Of a DNA stretch of 64,000 bases, positions 22,832-62,100 are shown one piece after another (within the stretch, counting starts at the first letter, position 1; each line of letters opens with the position of its first letter). The notes under the pieces were generated by a model, which was not told where the DNA came from, ran no database searches, and saw only the letters and a program-made list of their open reading frames with translations. Source of the DNA: Gavia stellata (Eukaryota > Chordata > Aves > Gaviiformes > Gaviidae); contig NC_082597.1 in assembly GCF_030936135.1 (NCBI RefSeq), positions 76,180,495-76,244,494 on the forward strand. Reading direction: 5' to 3'. The position numbers and the translations under genes were made by a program.

Positions 22832-23439
22832 CTGCAGGAATTATTTAAGCCCTTGTTATTGCTTTCATCTCCTCTTGAAAAAGAAGCATCAAATGCAGCA
22901 AGTCAAAAGTCCAGCCCTTGATGCTACAAAGCAAAGGATATTGACTCTCAGACTGTCTTCGCCCTCACAATTTGTTTGCCGTATGCCATACTCACCTTAC
23001 TCTTTGCTACTACTATGCCACAAAATCCTGACGGGTCAGGTTACTGAACTGTTTACCTGGCTCTCCTCTAAGCCATATGTTGAAGGCCCCCCTGATGAGG
23101 CCCTAGTGTAGCATTTCATCTCCTGGAGACCAAGCGGGCTTTTATCATGACAGCAGCGGGGATGGGAGCAACAGCAAGTCTGAAAGAAGCTGGGTTAAGA
23201 AGCATTATGAACTGGCTTTGTGCTACATGGTGTTTTCTCATGGAAAATCTTCAGCTGAATGGAGCGGCAATGGTAAGTACCAAGGCTTTTTAAAAGCCTG
23301 TATCCCTCCCCAGATGTCACTGGGGCCCAGACAGACCAGCAAGGCTGTAACAAACGCAACATGAGGCCTTGCCACATCTGACAGCTTTCTGCCTCCCCGC
23401 GAGATGAAGTTGGCTGATCTGAAGTGCATGTGCATATGG

Positions 23440-23623
23440 GTTTGCTTTTTTTCTTTCCCCTACGGCTCCGAAGCGCAATGCAGTAGCAGCACCCGGCTGC
23501 CAGCGGCGCGCAGCCCCGTACGCCCGCTGGGTGAGGATGGGTGCCTGCAGGGACCCAGCGGGCACCCGTGACAGGTTTCCTGCCTCGGGGTCCCCTTTGC
23601 TCCCAGGGACGCGAATCTTATCC
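23440..23623 (+). promoter_or_regulatory. Probable 5' region of the dystroglycan-like gene
   Basis: This is a CG-richer patch directly upstream of the signal-peptide ATG. A donor-like CTGG|GTGAGG at 23530/23531 and a good pyrimidine-tract acceptor ending at 23606 (CTCCCAG|GGAC) could remove a 76-bp intron from the 5' UTR. Without that splice, an in-frame ATG at 23537 would add 29 residues before the signal peptide. I saw no clear TATA box. Confidence 0.4.
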
Positions 23624-23815
23624 ATGCTCCCTCTTCTCTTTGCGCTGGTATCTGTCTGTGTAAACATGCCCGCTGTGGTTGCCAATGGATCAAATAACAG
23701 ACGGGAAGAAACAAAGAGCCTGCAAGGAATCCCAGACGCAACCATCCTTATGGGAAAAATATTCTATTATCCACTGCCAGTACTTGCCTTTCAGGGAATG
23801 ATAACTCATTACAAG
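23624..23815 (+). CDS. Dystroglycan-like, coding exon 1 (aa 1-64)
   Basis: It encodes the signal peptide (MLPLLFALVSVCV then a small-residue cleavage region near VVA) and the start of the first cadherin-like domain (GIPDAT motif). It ends THYK|GTAATG in phase 0. Human DAG1, from memory, has its single coding intron after the equivalent lysine (about K95), so the intron position looks ancestral. Confidence 0.88.
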
Positions 23816-26800
23816 GTAATGGTATTAAATACGCTTCTTGGTACAATCCTGCAGCAAATGGGCATTCACTTTATGGTTAAAATGAACTCATTAAAAATCT
23901 CTTTATAGAGAAGTGCCTCAGATGTATTAGAAATAAGTAGAACTGATGGCAAAAATCTCACCATCATTCACTGCTAACGTAGCAGTTACGTACCATGCAA
24001 ATAAACAACCCCCCTGCACGACATGTATTTTATTTACCTGCAGTCTAAAGAATGCAGGGTCTTAAAAATGGACAGAAAGTGTTGGCACTACATTTAAAAA
24101 CACACAAACAAGCGCTACACGAAAATCAAGGCACTGTGGTTTCTAGATTTTCAAATGGATCATTTGTGGCTGTTCCTGGATTTCTGTCCAGTTAGAACTT
24201 GCAGTATGTAAAACTAGAGTAGTAACACCATTTCCTATCTCTAATTCTGCTTACCTGACACCCTCTCACGGAGCAGGTCACTTTAGCCAGTGGTGCAGAT
24301 TTGCCAAAATGGTTGGACTTCAACCCCAATACAAACACGCTGCAAGGACTGCCAATGGCAGGGGAGAGCGGAGTATACCTGCTGAACATAGCTGCCTCCG
24401 GAAGGACGCATGCCCGGAAAACATTGAGAGCTGCTGGAAATGTCACCATCCACGTTCAGGATGGCATCGTATTCCTGGACACAGAGGGGAGCTTGAACCA
24501 CATGCCAAACAGCTACCAGTGAGTACTGCTAGCTTCCAACAGCTTTTGCCCTGATCAGTTGGGGGGAATTTTAAAAAAGAGATGGGTGCTCCCTAGCTGA
24601 CACTGGGTGGTTTTTTCTTACCATGGAAATATGACATTGGGAAAACAAAACCAAAACAAACAAAACCCCCTGAAAAATACTGAATAAGCACATGTTGAAT
24701 CTAAAAGCAAGAGGCTTTGTTGTCCCAGGGTGGTAGTGCACAGCAAATATAGGCATGAAGACTGCATGCCCAGCGGCGTTGGGGCACCGATTCTCCAGTT
24801 GGCCACTGTACGGGCGGCATCCAGCCTCCCTGCCCCAGTTAGGAACTGGAGCTCTTCTGTCAGCAGGGAGGGAGGCAGGCTCCCAGCAAGGCTCTGAATT
24901 GCCTCCACACTTCCACTGATGGTACTTTCTTAATGTAACTACCTACATTTGATGTCTAAGGGACTGGGAATATCTCTTAAGTGAATTATTTCCAAGTCCA
25001 CATAATAAGGATAGTGTTTGGTAAATTCAGACCATGCTGCTGTATTCTACAGAAGCAATGGGATCAAACTTAGTGCTCACTGACGTTAATAGAATGGGAA
25101 ACATTCATATATCCAGTAGGAGGAAGTTTTGGACTAAGAGGTAAAATTTTGAGTGATGTATGTGCATAAGATGATAGACTAAATCCAAACAGGCATCTTC
25201 ACGAAAACAGGGGGGCAGATAAATGACTCTTAACCAATGCAATTTTGGACTTCCAATATCAGGTGTGGGAAGGAAGTTCCCATCACTTCTGCTGAAATCA
25301 TTCTCCCTACTGGAGCTGAAACCCTTGAAGTACAGGAACGCCTCTACATCGTGCGCACAATGGCCGAATATCTCCACCTGGATTCCTCCCGACTAACCCT
25401 GTTGCAATACGCAGATTCGGCACACACAGGCTCGCAGAGCCTGACTGTACTGGCTGAAGACACTGGGCACATCGACTTTGCAGTGAACCATTACATAGGA
25501 CTCTCCTGGCCTGTGAAGTGTGGAGGGTTTGCTGTGCTCCCTGAATTCATCCAAGTCCTACGACACAACATTGACTCACGTCACCTCTCACAGCTGCTAG
25601 GGTATGAAATTGCAGGCTGGAGAATACTTAGGAGAGGCAATTATGAAAGAAAGTCTCCAAGACGACAACGTAGGCGATTAATGATCACGCCAACACCTAC
25701 ATTAAAACCAGTTAGAATTACCCAGAGATCAGCCACAGGAGATGCTTCCAGGCCTTTGTCCTCTACTGTGCCAAGCCACTTACTCACAGGACTTGCGGTA
25801 TCACCTACTCAGAGTTTATCATCTTTCTGTGAAGAAAGTATGACAGCAAGTTACAAGATGCAGAATAATATCCATCTTATAAGTCAAGAAAGTTTGGTCA
25901 CCTTAGAAATGGACTCAGCATGGGACATGCCAACTAACCCACCAGTATCTGTTACGTTTGCAGACTCCAATTTTCCAGGTCTTTTGCCTTCACTGATTAC
26001 TAAAGCAACACTTCTCTTCACTGAACTGGAAGTGCTGCCTACTAGAGCTTCTGGCACGCCCTTGCTGCTAGAGCAGCCGGAGCCTCAGGTGCCTGGGACA
26101 GACTCTAATTTCCTTTCTAATAAATCAGAAGTATCCACATATCATTTCCTGCAGGGCATCACTTCAGACACAGACCAGCTTTCCAGGCCCATGTCCACTT
26201 GGGTGATAAACACTCTTCAGGAATGGCCTCACAGCTCAGCAGAGGCATTTCCTTCTAAGGCAGAATTTCATGTATTTTTTCCAGAAGCAACGTCAGTGCC
26301 AGATTACAGCAACAAGACAAAAAGCCACTTTCCAGAACTTCAAATGCTTTCTAGTGCACCCCTCTGTCCAGAAACACTCCCTTCACTATTCCCAAAAGCT
26401 TCAGTAAGAGCCGCCACTTTGTCTGACTTTGCATTTCCCATCGATGACACATTTCCACCTGTGCTAGCAAGTAGCAGTCTGAGCCAAGTGTTCACTAATG
26501 ACTATGAACAGTTATCTAAACCTTTTATGACTATCCCACATACCACTGGGTTTCCATTTGCTGAAGGGAAAAGCACAGTTTCTTCTGTAACCCGGAGGGA
26601 AGCGCAGACCCTCTATCCCAAAATGAATTTCAGTCCTGAAGCCCCAGCCTGCTTTTCTAGCATATTATGCAGCACTTTCCCTAGTAAAGCTGAAGCATCT
26701 TACGAACCAACTCTGATCATTCTGTCCCATCCTGATACTGCTCCAGTTCTCACTCTGCCAGTAGACTTTTCTAGCTTTGACACGTCTGAGCTGTCCAGAC

Positions 26801-29800
26801 GACCAAATGTACTTCGTTCGTCTTACGGTGGCAGCACGCTCAGAACAGAGATGCAGTCTACAAGTGTTTTATCCAGCTGCACAAAGGAACTGCATTCAGG
26901 CAGAGATCTGGGAACAAGAAGGATTTTGCCAAACATCACTGAGCCTACCCTGGAGTCACACAAAATCTCAGACATCATGTCGGATGCTGTAGAAGTACCT
27001 CTGGTGACGTTATTTAATGCCACTTCTCATCTATCCAGCAGTATACCAGGTATGTTTAAGATTTGACTTTCTGTTCTTCTTTCCTGCCCTGAGAGTCCTG
27101 ACAGAATAGTTCAACACAGTTTCTTCTGCAAAAACATGACTTCACTGCACTAGGGGTGTGTCAGCAGCAGTGTTCCTTGTAAGGGAAAGTAATTTTTTCG
27201 CTCAACTTGGTACAGGTAACAGCTCGGCTGAACAATCAGACCCAGCTTTGGCCATCCTAGCTAAGGAAAGATGTGGACCCATTGAAAAAGCTCCAAAGGA
27301 ACACAAGGATGGTCAGAGGTCTAGAAAACATGACAAACTGAAATAATTAGTCTAGAAGACTGAGGAAAGATGCAGGTTTATGTAACAGTTCGCTGAAAAG
27401 ATGAAAGAAGTGTTCTCAGTATCCTCTGGGAACTGAAGCAGTACTAAATGACCTTCAATTGCAGTTAAGATTATTTAAGTTAGATATTAGATAAACTTTC
27501 TCACAGTAAGGATAATAAAACATTAGAAGAGATGCTTGGGGAACATTGTGGAGGGTTTTTAAGAACAGAACAATAAATATTTATCAGAAATGACACAGCA
27601 GTAGCTGAGTATCCTACAGAGTAAAGAATTAGACCAGACACCCTTTACAGTCCGCCTTCTCCTCCAGCTGCATGAATCTGTGACACAGGTTGAAATATAT
27701 ACTAGACTACAGAGATGGTATGTTTGTAGGACCAGTTGGATAAGTCTGCAGGATTATGTCTGAATCAGCTTATATTACATCCATAAAAAGGTACACATGG
27801 TAGATGTTAAATACTTACTAAGTGCAGCATTCAGAACCAAACTATTCCTTCATTCTAGAGTGACCTGACTGCCCCTATTTTTAATGCATTGACCTTGTTA
27901 ATGCCCTTCAGAACCATCTTCTTTGTAAAACTTTACTAGACCTACGTTGTCTATACCCATAGCGCAAGACTGTGGTCTGAATATTTAGGTATGCCAACAG
28001 GTGTCCAAGCAAGCATCTGTCAAAGCCCACAGATGGACAACACAGCCCTAACACAATACCTTTATTAACACTCTTGCAAACACAGGCCATCTAGAGATGT
28101 TAAAAAATATCTTTCTGCTCCAGTGAGAGAAACCACTTGGGTGAAGAGTTCCCTCACTTTCTAAAGGGGAGGTTGAACTCTAGCTTCCTTCCCATGCTGG
28201 CAGATGCTGGCAAAGAGTTTTCAATCTCATGCCATAAAAGCTTTTAAACTACATTCCCAACCCTACAGCAAATTATTAACATAAGATCCCTTTTACATAA
28301 ATCTAAACCACCTTTCACCTTAAACTATAATGATCTTCCCATTTTCACAGAGGTGGTGCAGACACTACTGCCATCGCAGCAGGATCCAAGCACCTTGCTG
28401 TTTCCCACATCTGAAAGACTGCAGTCCATGGAAAGTGCATGGATTCCTCCTCCATTTTCTGTTTCACAAGAGCTTCAGAATATAATCCCAGGTAAAAGGA
28501 AGTTTAATTCCATGTTCTTACTTCTGAACGTGGCTGTCATCAACCTTTTTATCCATCTTGCAAGGTATCTCTGGTTTCCTGTACTAGAACCCATGCAGTC
28601 CTCAAACTATTATGACTTAAAGATTCATGTCCTTCTGAATTAATCCCTCCCTATTATTTACATTAAGTAATACAAAAGGAGAGGATAAGATTAGGGCATG
28701 ATTTTACTCAATCTTGCAAATTGGTCCCTATCCGAAAGTGGAGAAAAAAACCAAATAAATGAGATCCAGAAACGGCAGAAAGAAAGGAATGTTTCTGTCA
28801 CAGGTTGCAGGAACTCCCTGTGTCCTGATCTTCTCCCTTGCTCCTTGAGCCGGTCAGCAAACTTCACCTAACAGTCACAGAGAGATTTCCTTTCAAATTT
28901 GTCACCACATGTTATTATCCTACAGCTTACTTGGTGTCCGCTCACATATTCATAGGAGCTCTTCAAAGTGGGCAGATGCGCAGCACTCAAAGTAGTCCTG
29001 TCCCAGGCAGGGTGTCTGCCACCTCCAGAAGTGGGGTGCTGAGGCACCCAGTGCTTCCCCAATTAATCTGAAATATTCCTGATGCTAAACACAGCTCAAT
29101 GGGATAAAGAAAAACCAAACATATTCTCATAAAATCCCCAAACAAAAAAATCCACGATTAGTGTTAGAAGATGAAACAATAACATGTTTTAATGATTACC
29201 TCATACATGAGCTCTGTTTCGGAATCTGATGAAGCACTCGGACATCAGGGCTGGGATTGATTCTTTGCAGAGTTAAGAGCTGTTTCTTCAGGAATTGTGT
29301 TTCCCAAGAGGTCACTTCATGTGGAAACATAATCATGAGCTTCTGCACTTTCTGAGGATCTCAGCTTGTGCAAGCACAATCCCAGGGGTTCCTGCAAACT
29401 TAATGCTGGGAATGAAGGCAAATCAAGGTAACACCCTGCTAACGAGATACCCGTGCTAGAGTCTTTGATAGGTAAAGTATCGCAGTACCAGGCAGTCTCC
29501 TGCTGCACAGCTTCAAACCGTAATCCAAACTCGGATTTTAGTAGACCATCCAATCGTACAAGGAGGGGCCTTGAAGTTTACGTAAGCTTTCCATAACACA
29601 AAATGAAAAAAATAATTTCAAGCAAGACTTTGCAATAATAGGAAGGAACACTGCCCTTATTCTTCCATATTTAAAGCATTAGAAATGAGACATACTTAAC
29701 TGCCTCCATAAAGTAAATGCGTCACCTGAGAGGCATATTGTGGTGTTTCTGTGTAAAAGTTACTAGAATAAGATATTATTGTTTGGGAAGGCACTATACA

Positions 29801-32238
29801 AGACCTGACTAATCTGTTAGACTAGAAACAGTGTTGTACATATTTATAACTCTTTAAATAAACATGTATCTAAATATGCTTAAGCCAATGAAGTTGTTAA
29901 GATATGATCACTTTACAGTACTGTTGCAAGCTTAAGTTTCAGTAGAAGTGAGGCAAGTCCAGAATTTCCCTTACCAGTCCTCAGCATCCACCATCATCAT
30001 TCGCAGGTCAGATGCTGCACGAGGTGACGGCCACAATGTCCACTGAAAAAACAAATGCCATCCACCCAGCTGAGTGCAGGCTTAGAAAGGACAGCAGCTG
30101 AACTGGCTTGCTTCTGATTTACAAGACATTAGCAATCAGTTAACACACGATGTAAAGCAGATTTTAAGATAATTTGTTTTCATTTGTTTTCTATATTTTA
30201 GCTTTGAATTAACCTGTTTAAGATTAAAATTTGAACTTGAACCTTTTTAATTGCTTTTGAGATTATCCTCTGATTATATGTTGAATTGGTCTTGTTAGCA
30301 TTGGGTTTGGAAAAAATACAGATTAAACAAACAAGAGTGCTTTATTGCATTTTAGATAGTTATCAGCCATGTATTTTCAGTCTAAGTCTCCCAAGGCCCA
30401 GTATGTGAACCCCATTTAAGGTTGCTACACAAAATCCAGATTACCAACACATTTCCATCTTAATGCAGTCAAAGTATTTTAAAAAAAATCTTCAGATTGT
30501 CTTCCAAAATGATGCTGTGCTAAGTGGTTGTGCTCAGTTACTCACTTCACAGGAAAGAACGATTTGCAATGTCCATCACAAAGGGAAATAATGTAAGAAA
30601 AGCAGTGGGGAGTTCTGTTGACCCTAAACAAAACCCAAGAAGTACTGTTTCTCAAAAAGGACTCTAGAGGGCAATGTAATGTTTCTCTTCTGAAAAGTGA
30701 CAGATAATATAACAAGGGGCAATAGTCACAAAACTGCATCTCAGGGGGTTCAGACATCAGGAAAACTTTTTCACTTGGGGGTAACACAGCAATGGAACAA
30801 GTTACCCAGAGAGACTTGGGACCCTTCATCCTCAGAAGTTTTTAAGACTCAGCTAGGCAAAGCCATGCTTGATCTCATTTCGTGTTGACTACAGATCTGC
30901 TTTGAGCAGGGGGCTGGCCAGATGACCTCCAGAGGTCCCTTCTAGCCAACATGCTCCATAATCGTATGAGGCTGACAAGATTTCTTTGCTATCATTCAGT
31001 ATCAGATAGCTATTTTTATCTCATAATTCTTTCCCTTCCTTTTCTCCCTCCTCTCTAAAGGGCAAGCAAACACTTCCCCAAAGGTTGTTCAGTCCATTAA
31101 ATTCCTAACAGCAACTATCGGATGCCTCTTCTTTTTTCCTATACCTGCCAACACATTTTATGATGAGGAAGATGGCAACTCAACTCAGTTATCTCTACAA
31201 ATCATTCCAGCTGATGGCTCTTCATTGGGATCAGAAAGCTGGCTGCAGTTTAACAGCTCTCAGCAAACCATGCACGGCTATCCCCTCGATATTGATTTCC
31301 AGTATTCACCTCAGGAGTTTGTGCTGTCTGCCACAGATTCAGGAGGACTGACTGCCTGGGAATCCTTCACCATTGAGCTTCTGAAGCCCACCAATGTACC
31401 CTGCCACCTTTACACCGTCAGAACAAAAAACAGCTACTACTCTTTCCTGAGAGAGAGGAAAAGGATTAGTTTGTTTCTAGAGAAGCTCTCCCTCTATTTG
31501 AACTCCAGCAGTCCCAAAGACATCATGGTGATGGCTCTCAAACCTGGGTCCACGGTAATCTCATGGTATAACAGTTCCCTGTGTACAAGTGCCAACAGAA
31601 CTTCCAGCTGGTGTGCAAAAAATGAAATCCAGGAAGCACTAGAGAAATTAAGAGTGCCGGATGGGTATGTTAGCCCACACTTTGCCCAAGCAATGTTGCC
31701 AGAATACAAAATTGATGTCATTTTCAAGATTGCATATAGTGAAGCCTGCTTTCCCGCTACAAAGCCATTCGATGGGTCTTTCAACAGTACTGTGCCTACA
31801 CTTCAAGACAAGAATGACTCCATGACTAGGAAGACCACATCTGCCTTACTAAGCAGTCTTTGTGTCACTGTTGCGGTGGTTCTAATATTGGTTTACTGGT
31901 TTTGCAAGTGTCACAGGAGGATTCCTGGATCACAGTCTGTGACGTTTCAGAGAAACTCCCAGTTAAGCCACGCTGATGTGGAACTGGATGTCCTGAAACC
32001 TCGCAAAGCACCTGTACACGAGTGCAGGGCTTCACCTGCACCTCAGTTATGGATACCACCTTCGACATCACCTACCTCCCAAGAGCAGTATTCTAGGTCA
32101 GTAAGACCGCCGCACATTATACCATCTTTCCAGCCACCAAAATACCAACTCCCTCCCCGTTATCAAGAGGGTATGACTACCCAGAATGACCAGGACAATA
32201 TCCACAGACTTAAGTTAAGATCTTTTAAATTATACTAA
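23624..32238 (+). CDS. Dystroglycan paralogue (DAG1-like), 5 coding exons, 1,179 aa
   Basis: This is a laminin-receptor-type membrane glycoprotein of the dystroglycan family. Joining exons 23624-23815, 24277-24518, 25263-27049, 28351-28491 and 31061-32238 keeps one frame. Seen in order: signal peptide (1-20); cadherin-like CADG domain (about 35-124); alpha-DG-N-type domain with two cysteines (C146, C231); furin site RRQRRR (278-283); TPTPT (287-291); Ser/Thr/Pro linker (about 292-790); second CADG (about 800-897) with a TFYDEED signature; SEA-like domain with Gly950-Ser951 in a PGSTV context; cysteines 962 and 1017; membrane helix (about 1045-1068); tail with PPKY (1146-1149) and PPRY (1152-1155). 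DAG1 has the same order in about 895 residues; the excess is in the linker. From the family I infer cleavage into alpha and beta chains and tail binding to dystrophin-type WW domains. The start at 23624 gives the cleanest signal peptide. The alternative, DAG1 itself, is unlikely: sequence identity to DAG1 is partial and DAG1 sits in a different synteny. Confidence 0.9.
24277..24518 (+). CDS. Dystroglycan-like, coding exon 2 (aa 65-145)
   Basis: The acceptor is GAGCAG|GTC and the donor is CA|GTGAGT (phase 2). It encodes the rest of the first CADG domain, including PKWLDF, LQGLP and GVYLLNIAAS. These align with the DAG1 motifs PSWLHW, LEGLP and GVHYISVSA. Confidence 0.9.
25263..27049 (+). CDS. 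Dystroglycan-like, coding exon 3 (aa 145-741)
   Basis: The acceptor is AATATCAG|G and the donor is CCAG|GTATGT (phase 1). This large exon encodes the alpha-DG-N second domain, the YEIAGWRI motif (DAG1: YPVVGWHI), the furin site, the TPTPT motif and most of the linker. The linker is Ser/Thr/Pro-rich, with repeated FPSKAE and [DE]QLS[RK]P motifs and several cysteines. Translation reaches a stop 17 bases past the donor if the exon is not spliced. Confidence 0.92.
27240..27682 (+). mobile_element. Ancient CR1 LINE fragment
   Basis: Decayed CR1 3' sequence lies in the intron between coding exons 3 and 4. Recognisable landmarks are TTAGATATTAGATAAACTTTC, the GGGTTTTTAAGAACAG segment, TTAGACCAGACACCCTTTAC and a final GAATCTGTG. 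Divergence is high, so it is one of the old CR1 families. Confidence 0.75.
28351..28491 (+). CDS. Dystroglycan-like, coding exon 4 (aa 741-788)
   Basis: The acceptor is TTTTCACAG|AG and the donor is CCCAG|GTAAAA. Both ends are phase 1, so the 141-bp exon could be skipped without a frame change. It encodes only Ser/Pro/Gln-rich linker (for example LLPSQQDPSTLLFP). It is the least certain of the five, but frame and splice signals agree. Confidence 0.75.
28620..30690. other. Intron of the dystroglycan-like gene
   Basis: Unique AT-rich sequence up to the CR1 copy that begins near 30.7 kb. I saw no further exon of the gene here; frame and phase join exon 4 directly to the exon at 31061. Confidence 0.6.
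30695..30968 (+). mobile_element. Old CR1 LINE 3' fragment
   Basis: Diagnostic CR1 landmarks are present: ACAAGGGGCAATAGTCACAA, GGAAAACTTTTTCAC, GGAACAAGTTACCCAGAGAG and GATGACCTCCAGAGGTCC. The copy is 5'-truncated, diverged, and lies about 90 bp before the last coding exon of the dystroglycan-like gene. Confidence 0.9.
31061..32238 (+). CDS. Dystroglycan-like, coding exon 5 (aa 788-1179, stop)
   Basis: The acceptor is CTCTCTAAAG|GG, restoring a Gly codon, and the stop is TAA at 32236-32238. It encodes the second CADG domain (NTFYDEED, SWLQFNSSQQTMHG; DAG1 has DTFYDHED and SWVQFNSNSQLMYG). Next come the SEA-like domain with PGSTVISWYN (DAG1 RGSIVVEWTN), the transmembrane helix and the tail. 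The juxtamembrane basic cluster of DAG1 (RKKRKGK) is reduced to CKCHRR, and 24 residues follow the last PPxY. Confidence 0.93.
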
Positions 32239-36270: not shown

Positions 36271-56213
<19,943 letters not shown>

Positions 56214-58134
56214 TTTCTTCCTAAAAGAAACAGATAATAAAATCAGAAAGAAATTGTACAAGGCAAAAAATCACATCACAAGATTACTGTGCAATTTATA
56301 TAGTACAAAATCATCTTACTAGAACACGCAAGTTTTAAAGAGGTTACCTCTTGCAGTATTTAGATTACATACTGCACACATGAGTTACTACAAAACTTAA
56401 GCTTTTAAAAAACTACAAAAATCCCCATTTTAAGAATTTGTTTACATGGAGACAAATATCCTCTCGAACTCTTACTAGTCTGTATATTTAGTATACTAAT
56501 TCTCTAATCAGAAGAAACTATTTTTTTCAGGAGGAAAAAATATAGAAAATGTGAAAGTATACTATTGAAAAGGCAACAACGATGCACAGTATTACCCTCC
56601 CCACTTTTCTGATTAAAGAAACTTAAGAAAAAAGTACAGAAACTGCTTTCTATTTAAAGCTTATTTCTGAAAATAAGCAATATGGAAAAAATAATTTATG
56701 ATTAGGCTATACAGACCTTGAAGTAGTATAAACACGAGACTTTTAAGTAGATTTTCAGCCTTCACTTTGCTAGGTACATCTTTCTATTTTTACATGAATA
56801 TCTGCCTCTGTACTTTGATCTCTCGCTGACAGACATACCAAGTCTGAAATGATAATGTAAATGTTTCTTATCCAGCAAGACTCATAGGAGGACCCCTTGT
56901 ATCCTTCCCAACTACGGAGCCTGAGAACTCTGGAATGTCGTGTGGTTCATTTTGCTGTTTCGCATGGATAGACTGGGTTTCCCTCTCCTAAGAAATACTT
57001 TTGAAGCAACTATAACGTCAGATCCTTGTGTTAGGGTGGACATCGTAACTTGTAGACCCAAACTACATATGAAAAATAATCTCATACTAGTGCTCCTTAG
57101 ACCAAACACTCTTCATATCGAACTTACTCAACGTCTAGATGTTTCCATAACGTTTCTAGCATAAAAATCCATTTCGACCACGCAAGTGCTGCTGAATTAC
57201 AGAGTACACAACACCAAAAAAATATGCACGAGCTCATTTAAGAGACTAAAGCACCGGGGATTTACAGAAGCCAGACTGCGGGCGCAGGTTTCGCGGCCGC
57301 CCTCAGCCGCCGCGGCAGCCCGCAGCCCTCTCGGCAGAAGCCGAGGCCGGCGGCAGCCCGGGCCAGCCCAGCGCCGGGGGCCCGGCCCAGGGCCTGCACC
57401 CTATCCTGGGCCTGGCAGAGGGCCGGGGGGCCGGGGACGCCGCGCCGGCCCCTCGAGGGCAGGCAGGGAGGCAGGCAGGGGGGAGGCACGGCCGCAGACG
57501 GCCGGCGGGGTCCGGAAGAGGCGAGGTCGGCCCCCGCCCGGGGGGCGGGAAGCGCTTCTTACCTGGGCCGGCTCCTCCGCTGGTGCAGAAGTCCCGGCCC
57601 TGCTCCGCGCCGCGCCCGGGCCCGGCCGCGGGCTCGCTCCGAGGAGGAGGAATGGGGCCCGCGGGGCGCCCTAGACAGGGTCGGGCGCGGGCGCCTGCGG
57701 CCGGGCGACCTCCATGCCCCTGCGCCCGCCTCCTCCGCCGCCGGCTCAGCGGCGAGCGCGGGGCCCAGCTCCTGCCTCCGCGCCCGGCGCCCGCGGGGGT
57801 GGGAGAAGCGGCCGAAGCCCCCCCCGCTCCGCCCACCCCTGAGGCCGCGAGACCCCCGCGCGGCCACTTACGCCGCTGGCACAACGGCTCCCCCAGCGCT
57901 GGCGGGGGGAGCGCCTCTCCCCTCCTTCCCTCCTCCCCTCGCACCTCCCCGCCCGCGGCGGCGCCAGCCACCCGGGCCCCGGCGCCCGGCCGGCCTCACT
58001 CACCCCCCATGCCCGCCCCAGCCCCACCGCTCGGCCCTCCGCCTGGGCGCGGGCCGCCCCGCCCTGCCGCGAGACACCGCCCGCCCGCGCGCGCGCCACT
58101 TCCCGCACGGCGCGGAGGAGGAGGAGCCCGACGA

Positions 58135-58144
58135 TCTCGCGAGA
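58135..58144. promoter_or_regulatory. TCTCGCGAGA element 1
   Basis: An exact palindromic CGCG element, known as a strong CpG-island promoter motif bound by BANP and also linked to ZBTB33. This copy lies on the INTS13 side of the TATA-like palindrome. Confidence 0.85.
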
Positions 58145-58159
58145 CGCCAGAAACACACA

Positions 58160-58185
58160 CCCCCCCCCCCCCCCCCCCGGGGGGG
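58160..58185. repeat. Poly-C/poly-G tract (about C19 then G7)
   Basis: A run of about nineteen C directly followed by about seven G inside the promoter. It can fold as a hairpin, i-motif or G-quadruplex. Its length is a likely sequencing or assembly weak point. Confidence 0.85.
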
Positions 58186-58209
58186 CGGGCAGGCGGCGGA
58201 GGGGCCGGC

Positions 58210-58221
58210 CTTTTATAAAAG
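58210..58221. promoter_or_regulatory. Palindromic TATA-like element CTTTTATAAAAG
   Basis: A perfect 12-bp palindrome gives TATAAAAG on both strands. It lies between the two genes and could position start sites about 30 bp away in each direction (near 58.185 kb for INTS13 and 58.245 kb for FGFR1OP2). A CCAAT box (58222-58226) directly abuts it. Confidence 0.6.
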
Positions 58222-58226
58222 CCAAT
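58222..58226 (+). promoter_or_regulatory. CCAAT box
   Basis: GCCAATAGG, an NF-Y-type site next to the palindromic TATA-like element. Confidence 0.5.
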
Positions 58227-58265
58227 AGGGAGGCGCGGAGAAGCGACGGGAGCCGGAGAGGTGTC

Positions 58266-58275
58266 TCTCGCGAGA
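58266..58275. promoter_or_regulatory. TCTCGCGAGA element 2
   Basis: An exact second copy on the FGFR1OP2 side, centred about 55 bp from the centre of the TATA-like palindrome. Confidence 0.85.
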
Positions 58276-58317
58276 GCTGGGAGGGGCGGCGGGGCGGGGA
58301 GCGGCAGCAAGGTGTCC

Positions 58318-58327
58318 TCTCGCGAGA
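58318..58327. promoter_or_regulatory. TCTCGCGAGA element 3
   Basis: An exact third copy, 52 bp after the second. The surrounding GTGTC(T/C)CTCGCGAGAG context of copies 2 and 3 is similar, so one may be a local duplicate. Confidence 0.85.
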
Positions 58328-58439
58328 GCGGCGGGCGCTCGCCCGGCGCCGCTGGCAGGTAGCGCGGCCGCCCTCGCCTCACGCCGCCCTCGCCTCACGC
58401 CGCCCCGCCCACTGGCGGGGACGCGCCTCCCCCGCCCCT

Positions 58440-58538
58440 CCTCCGCTTCCCCCTGCGGCCCACCGCCATTTGACAGCGGGGCGGGCCGGTCGGGGCTTCA
58501 CCCCCGGCGCCGGGCGCTGCCGGAGCCGCCGGTCATGA
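58440..58538 (+). other. FGFR1OP2: Probable FGFR1OP2 noncoding exon 1
   Basis: GC-rich sequence with a YY1-like CCGCCATTT at about 58464, typical just downstream of start sites, ending at a strong donor TGA|GTGAGT at 58538/58539. Another donor-like site, CAG|GTAGCG, is at 58358. The 5' end is not defined. Confidence 0.5.
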
Positions 58539-58674
58539 GTGAGTGGCGCGAGGCGGGGAAGGGGCGTTTGGGGGCAGCCTGGCGGGCGCGGGGGAGGGGA
58601 GGGGACGCCGTTGCCGCCGGGCGCTGGGGAGTCCAACGGACTCGCGTTGGGGCGCGCGGGAAGCCCCTGGGCCC

Positions 58675-58682
58675 TGACGTCA
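58675..58682. promoter_or_regulatory. Full CRE TGACGTCA
   Basis: An exact palindromic CREB/ATF site inside the CpG island, about 137 bp after the putative FGFR1OP2 exon-1 donor. Confidence 0.55.
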
Positions 58683-59109
58683 CGAGGGGTGCGAGGGAGG
58701 AGGACCCCCCCCCCCTCGCCCTCCGGTACCGCCGGCTGGGGTGGGCCGGGGCCAGTCCTGCCGCTCGGCTTCGCCGAGGGAGCCTTCGTCGGCCCTCGCG
58801 TGCCCGCCGTGTCAGGGCAGGTGCCGGTGTCGCGACAGTCCTGCCCGGCGAGCCTCAGCATCCGTGGCGGCGGCGGCGGCGAGAGAGGGGAGGAAGCGGC
58901 GCTCCCTGAGGGCGAGCTGCCGCCCCCCCCTCGCCGCCGCCCCCTGCGCCCCTCCCGCGGCCGGCGAGCGGCGGGAGACCGCAGGTCTGCCGCGCGTGTA
59001 ACTGGGCTGCCGCGGTGGCGGCGTTGACGGGCCGGGCCTGTTTGCCCTGGGAGGCTCATTGTTTGTTGCGCGCTGCTGGAAGCGGCGGTGGCGCCGGCTG
59101 AGCCTGTGG

Positions 59110-62100
59110 GACTCTCCTTTTACGCGGAGGGTGCTACTGGGCGTCCGCACCCAGCCTGAAACTCGTGGAAACTGCGGCGCGGCTGAGCGCTGCTGAAGGG
59201 GTGGCTGCGGAGAGGAAAAGCCGAAGCATTAAGCTGTGGGAAAAGGTAGTTTTCAGTGAGGATGTGGAAGAAAGAAGAGAGAGAAAACCAGAGGAAGGCT
59301 ATAGTCGCGCAAAAACCTTTATTCTTTGGCGTTGTTTTCTTTTTAAAGGCAGCCAAATTTGATAATGAAAGCAATTAGTAAATAGCAGGAAGTGACAGGA
59401 AATGAATACGTAGTAACAGTATTGCTATGTTGTTCGAGTTGTTGCTCTTGCTGCCTCTGGGCCCTGTTGGTAGGATTGCAGACTAACTAATGTATTTGCA
59501 ACTGGGCATCTCTTGTAGGGTAGAGTTCAGGAATCATTAAGTTTAGCTTCTATAGTCCTCACGCTTGTAAAAAACATTAATATACAATAAGAATTGGTTT
59601 GAATCAAATATATTTGATTCATTGGTTGGGGTTTTTTCCCTACATGTCCAGGTTAACTGACAGATTTAGATCTATTGTAGGATAAGGCAAAACTTTTGTT
59701 TTTCCTAGGCAGCCAGATGAGCAACTATAGAGAATTTTAAATTCTAAGGATTAGGGCCAATGCCTTGCCCAAAGGAGTCCTAGTCAAGATTTGGAGCCAC
59801 TACGAATTACCATGATACAAGTCATGAGTCTCCTTTTTGAGGTACAAATGCTGCCCTGAAAACAGGAGGTGGCCCCTGGCCTGCTGAAGCTGCTGCACGG
59901 TGAGGGTGGATAGTCACTGCTGAATTTGCGCGGCTGCATGCCACACAAGGCGCACGCGTGTCTTCCCCAACTCATCCGCTGTGAAAAAGAATGCCGGTGG
60001 CTTTGCTACAAACGAGTTTCTTTTTATCTTGTGCGGTTGGGCTGGGTCAAAATGAGAAAGTGCATGAGAGGGTGAATACATACTGCGTTTAAAAATTTAT
60101 ATTGATGCATACAAATTATCAGAGGTGTTAACTGCATTGTAATCTGAATGCCAAATGTATTCCAAGCTCATGGAGAGGCTTGAGAGGCTTTGTTTATACT
60201 GGCTAGAGAATTCATGACCCATGAATTGAGTTAAAGACTGCTCTTCAAATTCTCCTTAGATATGGATCTGATTAAATCCATTTCTGTAACAGTTTAGTCA
60301 GCTAGTGTGGAAGGTCATCTTTTGTCTGTGATATTTTTGTAGTCCAGTAAGAACATGAGACCAGAATGGGCAGGAGAAATGAGGAGCAAGAAAAGCAGAT
60401 GCTTAAAAACAATGCAGTATGATCCCTATCTACATAATATTAAAAAGAGTTCAAACTGCTAAACCAGAGTGAATAAACTAACTACCTCTGATAACACACC
60501 AGCCTGCTGAAGAACTTGATACCTCAAATACACATATACATCACATGGGAGTGAAAATGAAAACTCTAGTTGATAAATGGGAAGGAATTAACATTACAAA
60601 TGTGTATAGGAACCTTTTACATGTCAAAATGCTGATGCTTTCGGTAACACGTGAATCACAGAAAACACAGGTTAAAACAGTTGTGCTCTGTGCATACATG
60701 AAGCTCACTTACAGAAGCTCCTTTGTCAGTAAGCAAGTCTCAACCTTTCTGTGATGGCAGGGTCCCTGAAAAACCCTTCTACATAGAAAAAGTAAACTAA
60801 ATGCTTTTATATTACATGTGCTACTCGGAGCAGAGGGAGCAGTTAATGAGATTACCAAATTAAAATTATTTTGAGAGGTTAGACCTTGCAGGACGTTCTG
60901 GGTGCACAAGAGCTCTTTAGAGAGAACATTCCAAGCTCTGTGGCTGTATTGCATAGTTTTTCCGCACCTTAATGCATGAGGGTAAGATATTCCTGCTATG
61001 TTTGTGAATCTTTTGAGGGAAATGGTGGAATTTCTGGTGTTTGAAATATCCTTACTTCTAGTACTTACCTGGGGTAGTGGGAAAAGGTCAGTTGGGGAAA
61101 ATGTGAGGATTTCTTTAAGCTTGGCTTAAAAGATCCTAGGCTATGATTTGTCAAGGCGCCTAAGAAAGTCAGAAAATCAACTTGGAGTACATTTTTTTTC
61201 CTATAGCTCAGGAAAGGCTCACTGACCTTTTATGCTTACAGAAATCTCTCCTTTAGGCAAACAGCCTGGCTAAGAAATGGATTTAGTTGATTCTTTCAGT
61301 ATCTTAGAAAGTTTCCTGAAACAAATATCAAGCCTTATATTAATAAGGCCCATAACTTTCATAAGCCTCTCTCATTACTGTCTGATTGCTGAAGAACTGT
61401 TCAAGGAGTTTAAGTAGATTTCCTTTTCAGTAGGAAAAGTGCAAGGCTTCTTAAAAGAAAATAAAAACTCAGGCTGAAAATCTTGGTCTTGAAACTTAAT
61501 CTATCAAGAACCAGTATGAAAAAATTCAATGTAAAGGCCAGTGTTTTGGAAATGCTAGTATGTACAAGCATTTTGCAAGTTTAGCAATTCTAGCAACAGG
61601 TAATTTCTGCAAACAAACTACTGCAATTAGAAGGCTCGTATTTTAACTATGCAGTTGGTTCTTTTTCTCAACTAAGTTGCTGTCTTTCTCTATCCTGTTG
61701 AAAATTTTACAGTTTCATTCCATGCAGTGATGTTTGTGTTCATTTATAGACATGAAGAAAACACAAGCTTTTAGTTGTCTCAATTTTTCCCAAGTAATTT
61801 TCTCTACTCTGTCAGTTTGAGCTGTTCCTTCTCTGCTGATTTAATTCACCAAAATCTTCCAGCCCACTGTAGTCCTTTGGCATTCTCTTTTGCGCTGGAT
61901 TTATACTTCTCAAATATCTTGAAGTATATCTGACTGGTAGGAAGGCACAGTAAAAAAAAAAGTAGTATTGAAAAATGAAGTAGTTAATGTAATACTCTTT
62001 TTTTTTTTTTTTTTTTTTCCCCCTCTGCTACTTACAGGAGGGCATGCACTGCTCAGTCTCCATATGTTCAATAGTCCTCTCACAACACAAAGTTTACTTT

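What the first reader, a model, noticed from the sequence alone, without database searches (positions are those of the whole stretch)
23624..32238. A second, divergent dystroglycan gene next to INTS13
Five exons join in frame into a 1,179-residue protein with the entire DAG1 layout: signal peptide, CADG, alpha-DG-N domain, furin site, Ser/Thr/Pro linker, second CADG, SEA-like domain, membrane helix and PPxY tail. Sequence identity to DAG1 is clear at motif level (NTFYDEED, SWLQFNS, LQGLP) but low elsewhere. I know of no such gene in the mammalian INTS13-ITPR2 interval.
Basis: partly seen in the sequence, partly recalled or inferred. Interest (0 to 1): 0.9.

Follow-up and report, generated by a model that had tools for sequence, protein, structure and literature searches.

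The report
Second, divergent dystroglycan gene in birds
This genome, probably a bird's, carries besides the normal dystroglycan gene a second and very different one that keeps the layout of this cell-anchoring receptor, and it looks like an ancient duplicate that has been overlooked or mistaken for the normal gene.

Summary
Five GT-AG exons join in frame into 1,179 residues, homologous to dystroglycan at both ends (PDB alpha-dystroglycan E 8e-32; own DAG1 E 2e-26 and 1e-18). It is not DAG1: an intact 896-residue DAG1 lies on contig C12, and two searches, which score only the best candidates, showed no third locus. The family-wide IG1 intron sits at the same codon and phase in both genes, so this is no processed copy. 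Two cysteine pairs, the furin/TPT region and the Gly-Ser alpha/beta cleavage pair are kept; the tail does not align but has two PPxY motifs. Where bird and mammal DAG1 differ outside the linker, the gene sides with neither (23 v 20), which favours a split before or near the bird-mammal divergence. Four marker families, chosen from recall, pair C12 with C4, favouring a 2R ohnologue. A chicken paper lists a BLAST-named "DAG1" beside INTS13 on chr1, probably the orthologue. Papers seen report vertebrate duplicates only in teleosts and lampreys. Untested: expression, range, glycosylation, dystrophin binding, species. New member of a known kind.

The parts
23607..23815 (+). exon 1 (coding from ATG 23624): signal-like N-terminus and first part of CADG1/IG1; an acceptor-like ctcccag ends at 23606, so a pre-ATG exon may lie upstream
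   Evidence: the start at 23607 is inference from the acceptor-like context
24277..24518 (+). exon 2: rest of CADG1/IG1 (LPKWLDFNPNTNTLQGLP)
   Evidence: preceded by the IG1 intron at the same codon and phase as in own DAG1
25263..27049 (+). exon 3: S6 (alpha-DG-N) region, furin-type site RQRR (aa 279-282), TPT motifs (aa 287-291), most of the linker
28351..28491 (+). exon 4: 141 bases (47 codons' length) of linker
31061..32238 (+). exon 5: CADG2, SEA-like region with Gly950-Ser951, membrane helix about 1048-1068, tail with PPKY at 1146 and PPRY at 1152, stop
37153..56201 (-). INTS13 (neighbour; span of 10 PF10221 exon matches), not part of the gene; gives the position

Best explanation
An intact, protein-coding second dystroglycan gene ('DG2'), most likely an ohnologue of DAG1 left from the early vertebrate genome duplications. 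It evolved fast and is kept in this genome and probably in chicken. Inferred working: the precursor enters the ER by its signal peptide. The N-terminal CADG1+S6 module is clipped by furin after RQRR. The TPT threonines just behind the cut are O-mannosylated and carry a core-M3/matriglycan-type glycan, for which the S6 module is the usual LARGE docking unit. The SEA-like domain self-cleaves at Gly950-Ser951 into non-covalently joined alpha and beta subunits. The alpha part binds laminin-G-type matrix proteins, and the beta part spans the membrane with a tail that offers two PPxY motifs to WW domains. Shown here: gene structure, homology, conserved sites, a separate DAG1, the paralogon position. 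Inferred: expression, processing, glycan, ligands, WW partner (dystrophin/utrophin or another).
For: Intact five-exon frame. Homology at both ends to solved dystroglycans (8 of 8 chain sequences matched at E up to 1 are dystroglycan) and to own DAG1. IG1 intron at the identical place: phase 0, with the Trp of LPxW as the 12th residue of the next exon in both genes (K64|V65 here, Q94|I95 in DAG1); this intron is universal in the dystroglycan genes surveyed in PMC5216574. Cysteines 146/231 and 972/1017 align with DAG1 181/263 and 670/714. Furin-type site with the first Thr five residues after the cut, as in DAG1, and an RxRxxIxxTPT match at 281-291, seen in 8e-5 of 50,000 shuffles of that 60-residue segment; DAG1 has two such sites. 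The Gly-Ser of the alpha/beta cut is aligned; solved chains 9c3c_A and 9c3c_B end and begin exactly there in DAG1. Two loci in the genome. Paralogon: ITPR family on C12, C4 and C30; Hairy_orange at C12:23.76 Mb and C4:75.83 Mb (2 of 12 hits; 10 elsewhere); Cast/ERC 24 of 24 hits on C12 or C4; IQSEC 6 of 6 on C12 or C4. Site tests 23 v 20 and 19 v 14. Chicken chr1:67.94-67.98 'DAG1*' (asterisk = named by BLAST) beside INTS13 (PMC13064311).
Against: No transcript, protein or dN/dS evidence. No orthologous sequence could be fetched, so the age rests on three sequences and on synteny. The linker columns left out of the site test lean to the bird (11 v 3; all columns together 30 v 17), though that part is barely alignable. 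The four marker families were chosen from recall of human 3p/12p ohnologues, not at random, with no control family outside that set. ITPR also has a third copy on C30. DAG1 (C12:5.8 Mb) is about 18 Mb from ITPR1, so the contig, not the neighbourhood, is shared. Tail homology to DAG1 is not detectable. A bare RxRR furin-type site appears in 16% of whole-protein shuffles, so it counts only through its aligned position. The protein has 17 cysteines against 7 in DAG1. The three extra introns are unlike the vertebrate DAG1 genes in the part of the 2017 survey that I read.
Confidence: 0.73

Rival explanations
1. A lineage-specific (sauropsid or avian) duplicate of DAG1 that moved to the ITPR2-INTS13 interval with its introns and then diverged very fast.
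For: The surveys seen report no such gene outside teleosts and lampreys (PMC5216574, PMC4582122). Extra introns and low identity fit rapid change. Linker columns side with the bird 11 v 3.
Against: Outside the linker, siding with bird v mammal DAG1 is 23 v 20 or 19 v 14. A recent split from the bird line predicts about 37 v 8 (P 1e-5 and 6e-4, with an assumed 6% chance match); an early sauropsid split is not excluded. Position in the partner block of C12 would be coincidence.
Confidence: 0.17
2. A decayed or decaying gene (recent pseudogene) that only still looks open.
For: No expression evidence; weak Kozak context at ATG 23624 (read).
Against: About 3.5 kb of open frame with GT-AG introns; key cysteines and cleavage sites kept; a dystroglycan-like gene reported in the same place in chicken.
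Confidence: 0.06
3. A rival on function, compatible with the gene's origin above: a dystroglycan-like matrix receptor that no longer couples to dystrophin; its tandem PPxY tail recruits other WW proteins (NEDD4- or YAP-type), or it acts as a decoy.
For: The tail does not align significantly to DAG1; PPKY-QL-PPRY lies 24 residues from the end instead of near the C-terminus, and the basic juxtamembrane stretch of DAG1 (RKKRKGK) is not matched. Two or more PPxY in the 110-residue tail occur in 0.15% of 20,000 shuffles, one or more in 6.6%.
Against: PPxY is also the core of the dystrophin WW epitope (recalled), so binding may persist.
Confidence: 0.4
4. Orthologue of teleost/lamprey Dag1a.
For: Those are the only vertebrate second dystroglycans in the papers seen.
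Against: The teleost hallmark S6 mini-intron is absent: exon 3 runs through S6 without a break. The lamprey Pm2 exon after the IG1 intron is 975 bp; here it is 242 bp.
Confidence: 0.08

Closest known systems
DAG1 (dystroglycan 1), same genome C12:5811938-5828030 minus
   Same: Domain order, IG1 intron place and phase, furin/TPT region, two cysteine pairs, Gly-Ser alpha/beta site, single membrane helix
   Different: 22.9-26.6% identity in the two main BLASTP segments; longer linker, less S/T/P-rich; one RxRxxIxxTPT site instead of two; 17 cysteines v 7; three extra introns; tail not alignable
Teleost Dag1a/Dag1b and lamprey paralogues (PMC1885269, PMC5216574)
   Same: Second dystroglycan gene in a vertebrate, IG1 intron kept
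   Different: Teleost Dag1a is close to ordinary fish DAG1 (sea bass v zebrafish 76.9% identity) and has an S6 mini-intron, the lamprey one a mucin-region mini-intron; here there is no S6 intron and very low identity
Chicken chr1:67.94-67.98 'DAG1*' (PMC13064311 Table 4)
   Same: Position beside INTS13 and BLAST likeness to dystroglycan; probably the orthologue
   Different: Its sequence and gene id were not seen here; the paper treats it as DAG1 itself, whereas chicken DAG1 is listed as ENSGALG00000027710 in PMC5216574 (chromosome not given there; chr12 is recall)

Membership tests
Dystroglycan family | Pfam DAG1 (PF05454) above curated cut-off | tested here: met
   25.9 v 23.3 bits in the protein, 107 of 290 profile positions; 29.1 bits in the genome search
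Dystroglycan family | CADG1/IG1 and CADG2/IG2 domains | tested here: met
   He_PIG, two stretches; alignments to PDB chains over both regions
Dystroglycan family | S6 domain with its cysteine pair | tested here: met
   alignment to alpha-DG-N chains 5n4h, 5llk, 4wiq, 5n30, 1u2c; C146/C231 align with DAG1 C181/C263; no Pfam hit, no fold prediction possible
Dystroglycan family | IG1 intron, universal in the DG genes surveyed | tested here: met
   same codon, phase 0 (PMC5216574)
Dystroglycan family | SEA-like domain with Gly-Ser alpha/beta cleavage pair and cysteine pair | tested here: met
   G950-S951 aligned with G654-S655; C972/C1017 with C670/C714; the cleavage itself is untested
Dystroglycan family | Matriglycan site (TPT after the furin cut) | tested here: inconclusive
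   sequence motif present; glycan not testable
Dystroglycan family | C-terminal dystrophin-binding PPxY epitope | tested here: inconclusive
   two PPxY motifs, not terminal, no alignable context
DAG1 orthologue group | Is the genome's DAG1 / groups with bird DAG1 | tested here: not met
   separate intact DAG1 on C12; site test 23 v 20 outside the linker; only three sequences
Teleost Dag1a | S6 mini-intron | tested here: not met
   exon 3 is uninterrupted through S6
2R ohnologue of DAG1 | Lies in the partner block of the DAG1 chromosome | tested here: met
   ITPR, Hairy_orange (BHLHE-type), ERC and IQSEC families pair C12 with C4; families chosen by recall, no outside control
2R ohnologue of DAG1 | Orthologues in other jawed-vertebrate classes; tree rooting before them | not testable with these tools
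   the tools' descriptions name no vertebrate collection besides this genome

The most novel reading that the evidence does not exclude
Jawed vertebrates started with two dystroglycans. The second (DG2) survives in birds, and perhaps in reptiles, as a matriglycan-bearing receptor with a rewired cytoplasmic tail. It was lost in mammals, so mammal-based models describe only half of the ancestral system.
Probability: 0.5. Interest if true: 0.8.

Novelty: new member of a known kind. Interest (0 to 1): 0.62.

Why it matters
Dystroglycan is treated as a single gene in tetrapods, the main carrier of matriglycan and the hub of the dystrophin complex (recalled). A second, intact, divergent copy would offer a natural test of which parts of dystroglycan are needed for glycan addition, cleavage and dystrophin coupling, and would add a candidate matrix receptor for avian tissues. 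It also warns that a chicken 'DAG1' placed on chr1 is probably a different gene: one 2026 selection scan reads it as DAG1.

Tried and rejected
Rejected: processed copy (the IG1 intron is kept); copy of the resident DAG1 or assembly duplicate (22.9-26.6% identity in the two main BLASTP segments; bird and mammal DAG1 agree at 406 of 517 columns outside the linker); teleost Dag1a (no S6 mini-intron).

Not done or led nowhere: a tree with fish, reptile or lamprey sequences (no vertebrate collection besides G000 is named in the tools); the viral, metagenome and prokaryote contig collections were not scanned. Structure prediction failed, so no fold search was made. SSPN (sarcospan, recalled to lie between BHLHE41 and ITPR2 in human) was sought with PF04103 and never answered, so its closeness is not claimed. 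To place the species I tried lysozyme (PF00062; one exon found, read, not the egg-white gene as far as I can recall it, not used) and cytochrome b (PF00033, never answered). Ten other window ORFs gave no Pfam hit at E 0.01 (one search lists 27 ORFs of 125 aa or more, some in the gene). NCBIfam gave no hit for the S6 and exon 5 stretches. The motif RxRxxIxxTPT was not found in the paper library in the wordings tried, so its role as the POMGNT2 substrate motif is recalled; PMC4924997 (passages) has TPT 317-319 as the M3 site.
Full report
Observation. Exons 3 and 5 sit in the two longest stop-free frames of the window, 610 and 403 codons. The chance of exon 3 being stop-free at its base composition is 2e-13, and its other two plus-strand frames hold 41 and 26 stops. 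Introns are AT-richer than exons (38-44% v 45-53% GC).

What it is. Pfam gives He_PIG (two stretches) and DAG1 just above cut-off. Against PDB sequences 8 distinct chain sequences match at E up to 1 and all 8 are dystroglycan. The best is 9c3c_A, E 8.1e-32, over residues 27-317 and 774-896; 8yt8_O covers 793-1064. The S6 (alpha-DG-N) part is thus supported by alignment, though Pfam has no S6 hit. Hydropathy shows a signal-like N-terminus and one membrane helix.

It is not DAG1. A search of the window's own genome (1.32 Gb, 1,185 contigs, window at C4:76180495-76244494) with PF05454 found 2 places: this gene (29.1 bits) and C12:5811941-5812810 (520 bits). A search with the protein found its own five exons plus the C12 gene (6 matches). 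Both searches score only the best candidates. The C12 gene is an intact DAG1 of 896 residues in two coding exons with a 13,402 bp intron. BLASTP between the two gives 26.6% over 787-1074 (E 2e-26) and 22.9% over 2-290 (E 1e-18).

Species. It is unlikely to be chicken: contig C4 is 85.8 Mb long, while chicken chromosome 1, where the chicken gene lies, is much longer (recalled).

Shared anatomy. The DAG1 intron falls after codon 94 and this gene's first intron after codon 64. Both are phase 0, and in both the Trp of LPxW is the 12th residue of the next exon (read; the aligner put a two-residue gap before it). Brancaccio and Adams (PMC5216574; abstract, Results part 1 of 2 and Discussion read) call this the IG1-intron and find it in all species surveyed. 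This gene has three more introns (after codons 144.7, 740.3 and 787.3), at places not reported for vertebrates in the parts I read. DAG1 Cys 181, 263, 670 and 714 align with 146, 231, 972 and 1017; this protein has 17 cysteines in all, DAG1 7. RQRR at 279-282 aligns with DAG1 RMRR, and the first Thr of TPT is the fifth residue after either cut. A bare RxRR site turns up in 16% of 2,000 whole-protein shuffles, so the aligned position is what counts. One RxRxxIxxTPT match lies at 281-291, against two in DAG1. In mammalian alpha-DG, TPT 317-319 is the M3 site (PMC4924997, passages); the longer motif is recalled. Gly950-Ser951 aligns with DAG1 Gly654-Ser655, where the solved subunits divide.

Differences. 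Residues 291-787 are 35.6% S/T/P, against 53.1% for DAG1 317-493; the whole protein has 15 N-glycosylation sequons v 8. The tail does not align significantly. It has PPKY and PPRY (two or more PPxY in 0.15% of 20,000 shuffles, one or more in 6.6%), not at the extreme end.

Age. In a three-way alignment without the linker, bird and mammal DAG1 agree at 406 of 517 columns. Where they differ the window gene sides with the bird 19 times and the mammal 14. The linker columns, left out because barely alignable, give 11 v 3, which leans to the bird; all together 30 v 17. With separate pairwise alignments the count outside the linker is 23 v 20 of 131. A late split from the bird line predicts about 37 v 8 (assumed 6% chance match; P 1e-5). 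This favours a split before, or close to, the bird-mammal divergence. Three sequences cannot root a tree.

Origin. ITPR/RYR-family matches (13) lie on C4:76.13 Mb (minus, 67 kb before this gene), C12:23.5 Mb, C30, C2 and C7. Hairy_orange matches (12) include C4:75.83 and C12:23.76 Mb; the other 10 lie elsewhere. Cast/ERC matches are 24 of 24 on C12 or C4, 12 each. IQSEC matches are 6 of 6 on C12 or C4. INTS13 is at window 37153-56201, minus (10 matches). The gene names ITPR1/2, BHLHE40/41, ERC1/2, IQSEC1/3 and the human 3p/12p relation are recalled. So DAG1 and this gene sit on two contigs that share at least four other duplicate pairs, as expected of a 2R ohnologue. The four families were picked from recall, without control families, and DAG1 is about 18 Mb from ITPR1.

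In print. PMC4582122 (passages and one section), PMC5216574, PMC1885269 (passages) and PMC8478517 (passages) describe vertebrate duplicates only in teleosts and lampreys, in what I saw. The searches aimed at a second dystroglycan (listings capped, e.g. 20 of 28 and 15 of 174 rows) listed no paper that describes one in birds. One paper touches it: PMC13064311 (passages and section 15) lists chicken chr1:67.94-67.98 with 'DAG1*', starred as annotated by BLAST, beside INTS13, and discusses it as DAG1. That is most simply the chicken orthologue under the wrong name. Databases may hold it as an automatic 'dystroglycan-like' model; none could be consulted.

How it probably works, and verdict. A cleaved, O-mannosylated, matrix-binding adhesion receptor with a changed set of cytoplasmic partners is the best guess. 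Shown: gene structure, homology, conserved sites, separate DAG1, paralogon position. Inferred: expression, glycan, ligand and tail partner. It is a new member of a known kind, of real interest if its range and expression are confirmed.

Noticed in passing
window 57165-59228: GC-rich stretch (64% GC in 58001-60000) with overlapping long open frames on both strands and no Pfam hit in the two tested; looks like a CpG-island promoter just upstream of INTS13.
   Followed up: partly
window 23423-23623: The coding frame stays open upstream of ATG 23624 to 23423, with another ATG at 23537 in a better Kozak context; an acceptor-like site ending at 23606 suggests a pre-ATG non-coding exon, as in DAG1.
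   Followed up: partly
G000:C12 and C4 (outside the window): C12 and C4 share ITPR, BHLHE40/41-type, ERC and IQSEC duplicate pairs, a paralogon in this assembly.
   Followed up: yes
PMC13064311, chicken chr1:67.94-67.98: A published selection scan interprets a BLAST-named 'DAG1' beside INTS13 as the muscle gene DAG1; it is probably the second gene.
   Followed up: partly
G000:C4:75.83-76.13 Mb: In human, sarcospan (SSPN), another dystrophin-complex gene, is recalled to lie between BHLHE41 and ITPR2, which would put two dystrophin-complex genes close together; the search did not complete.
   Followed up: no
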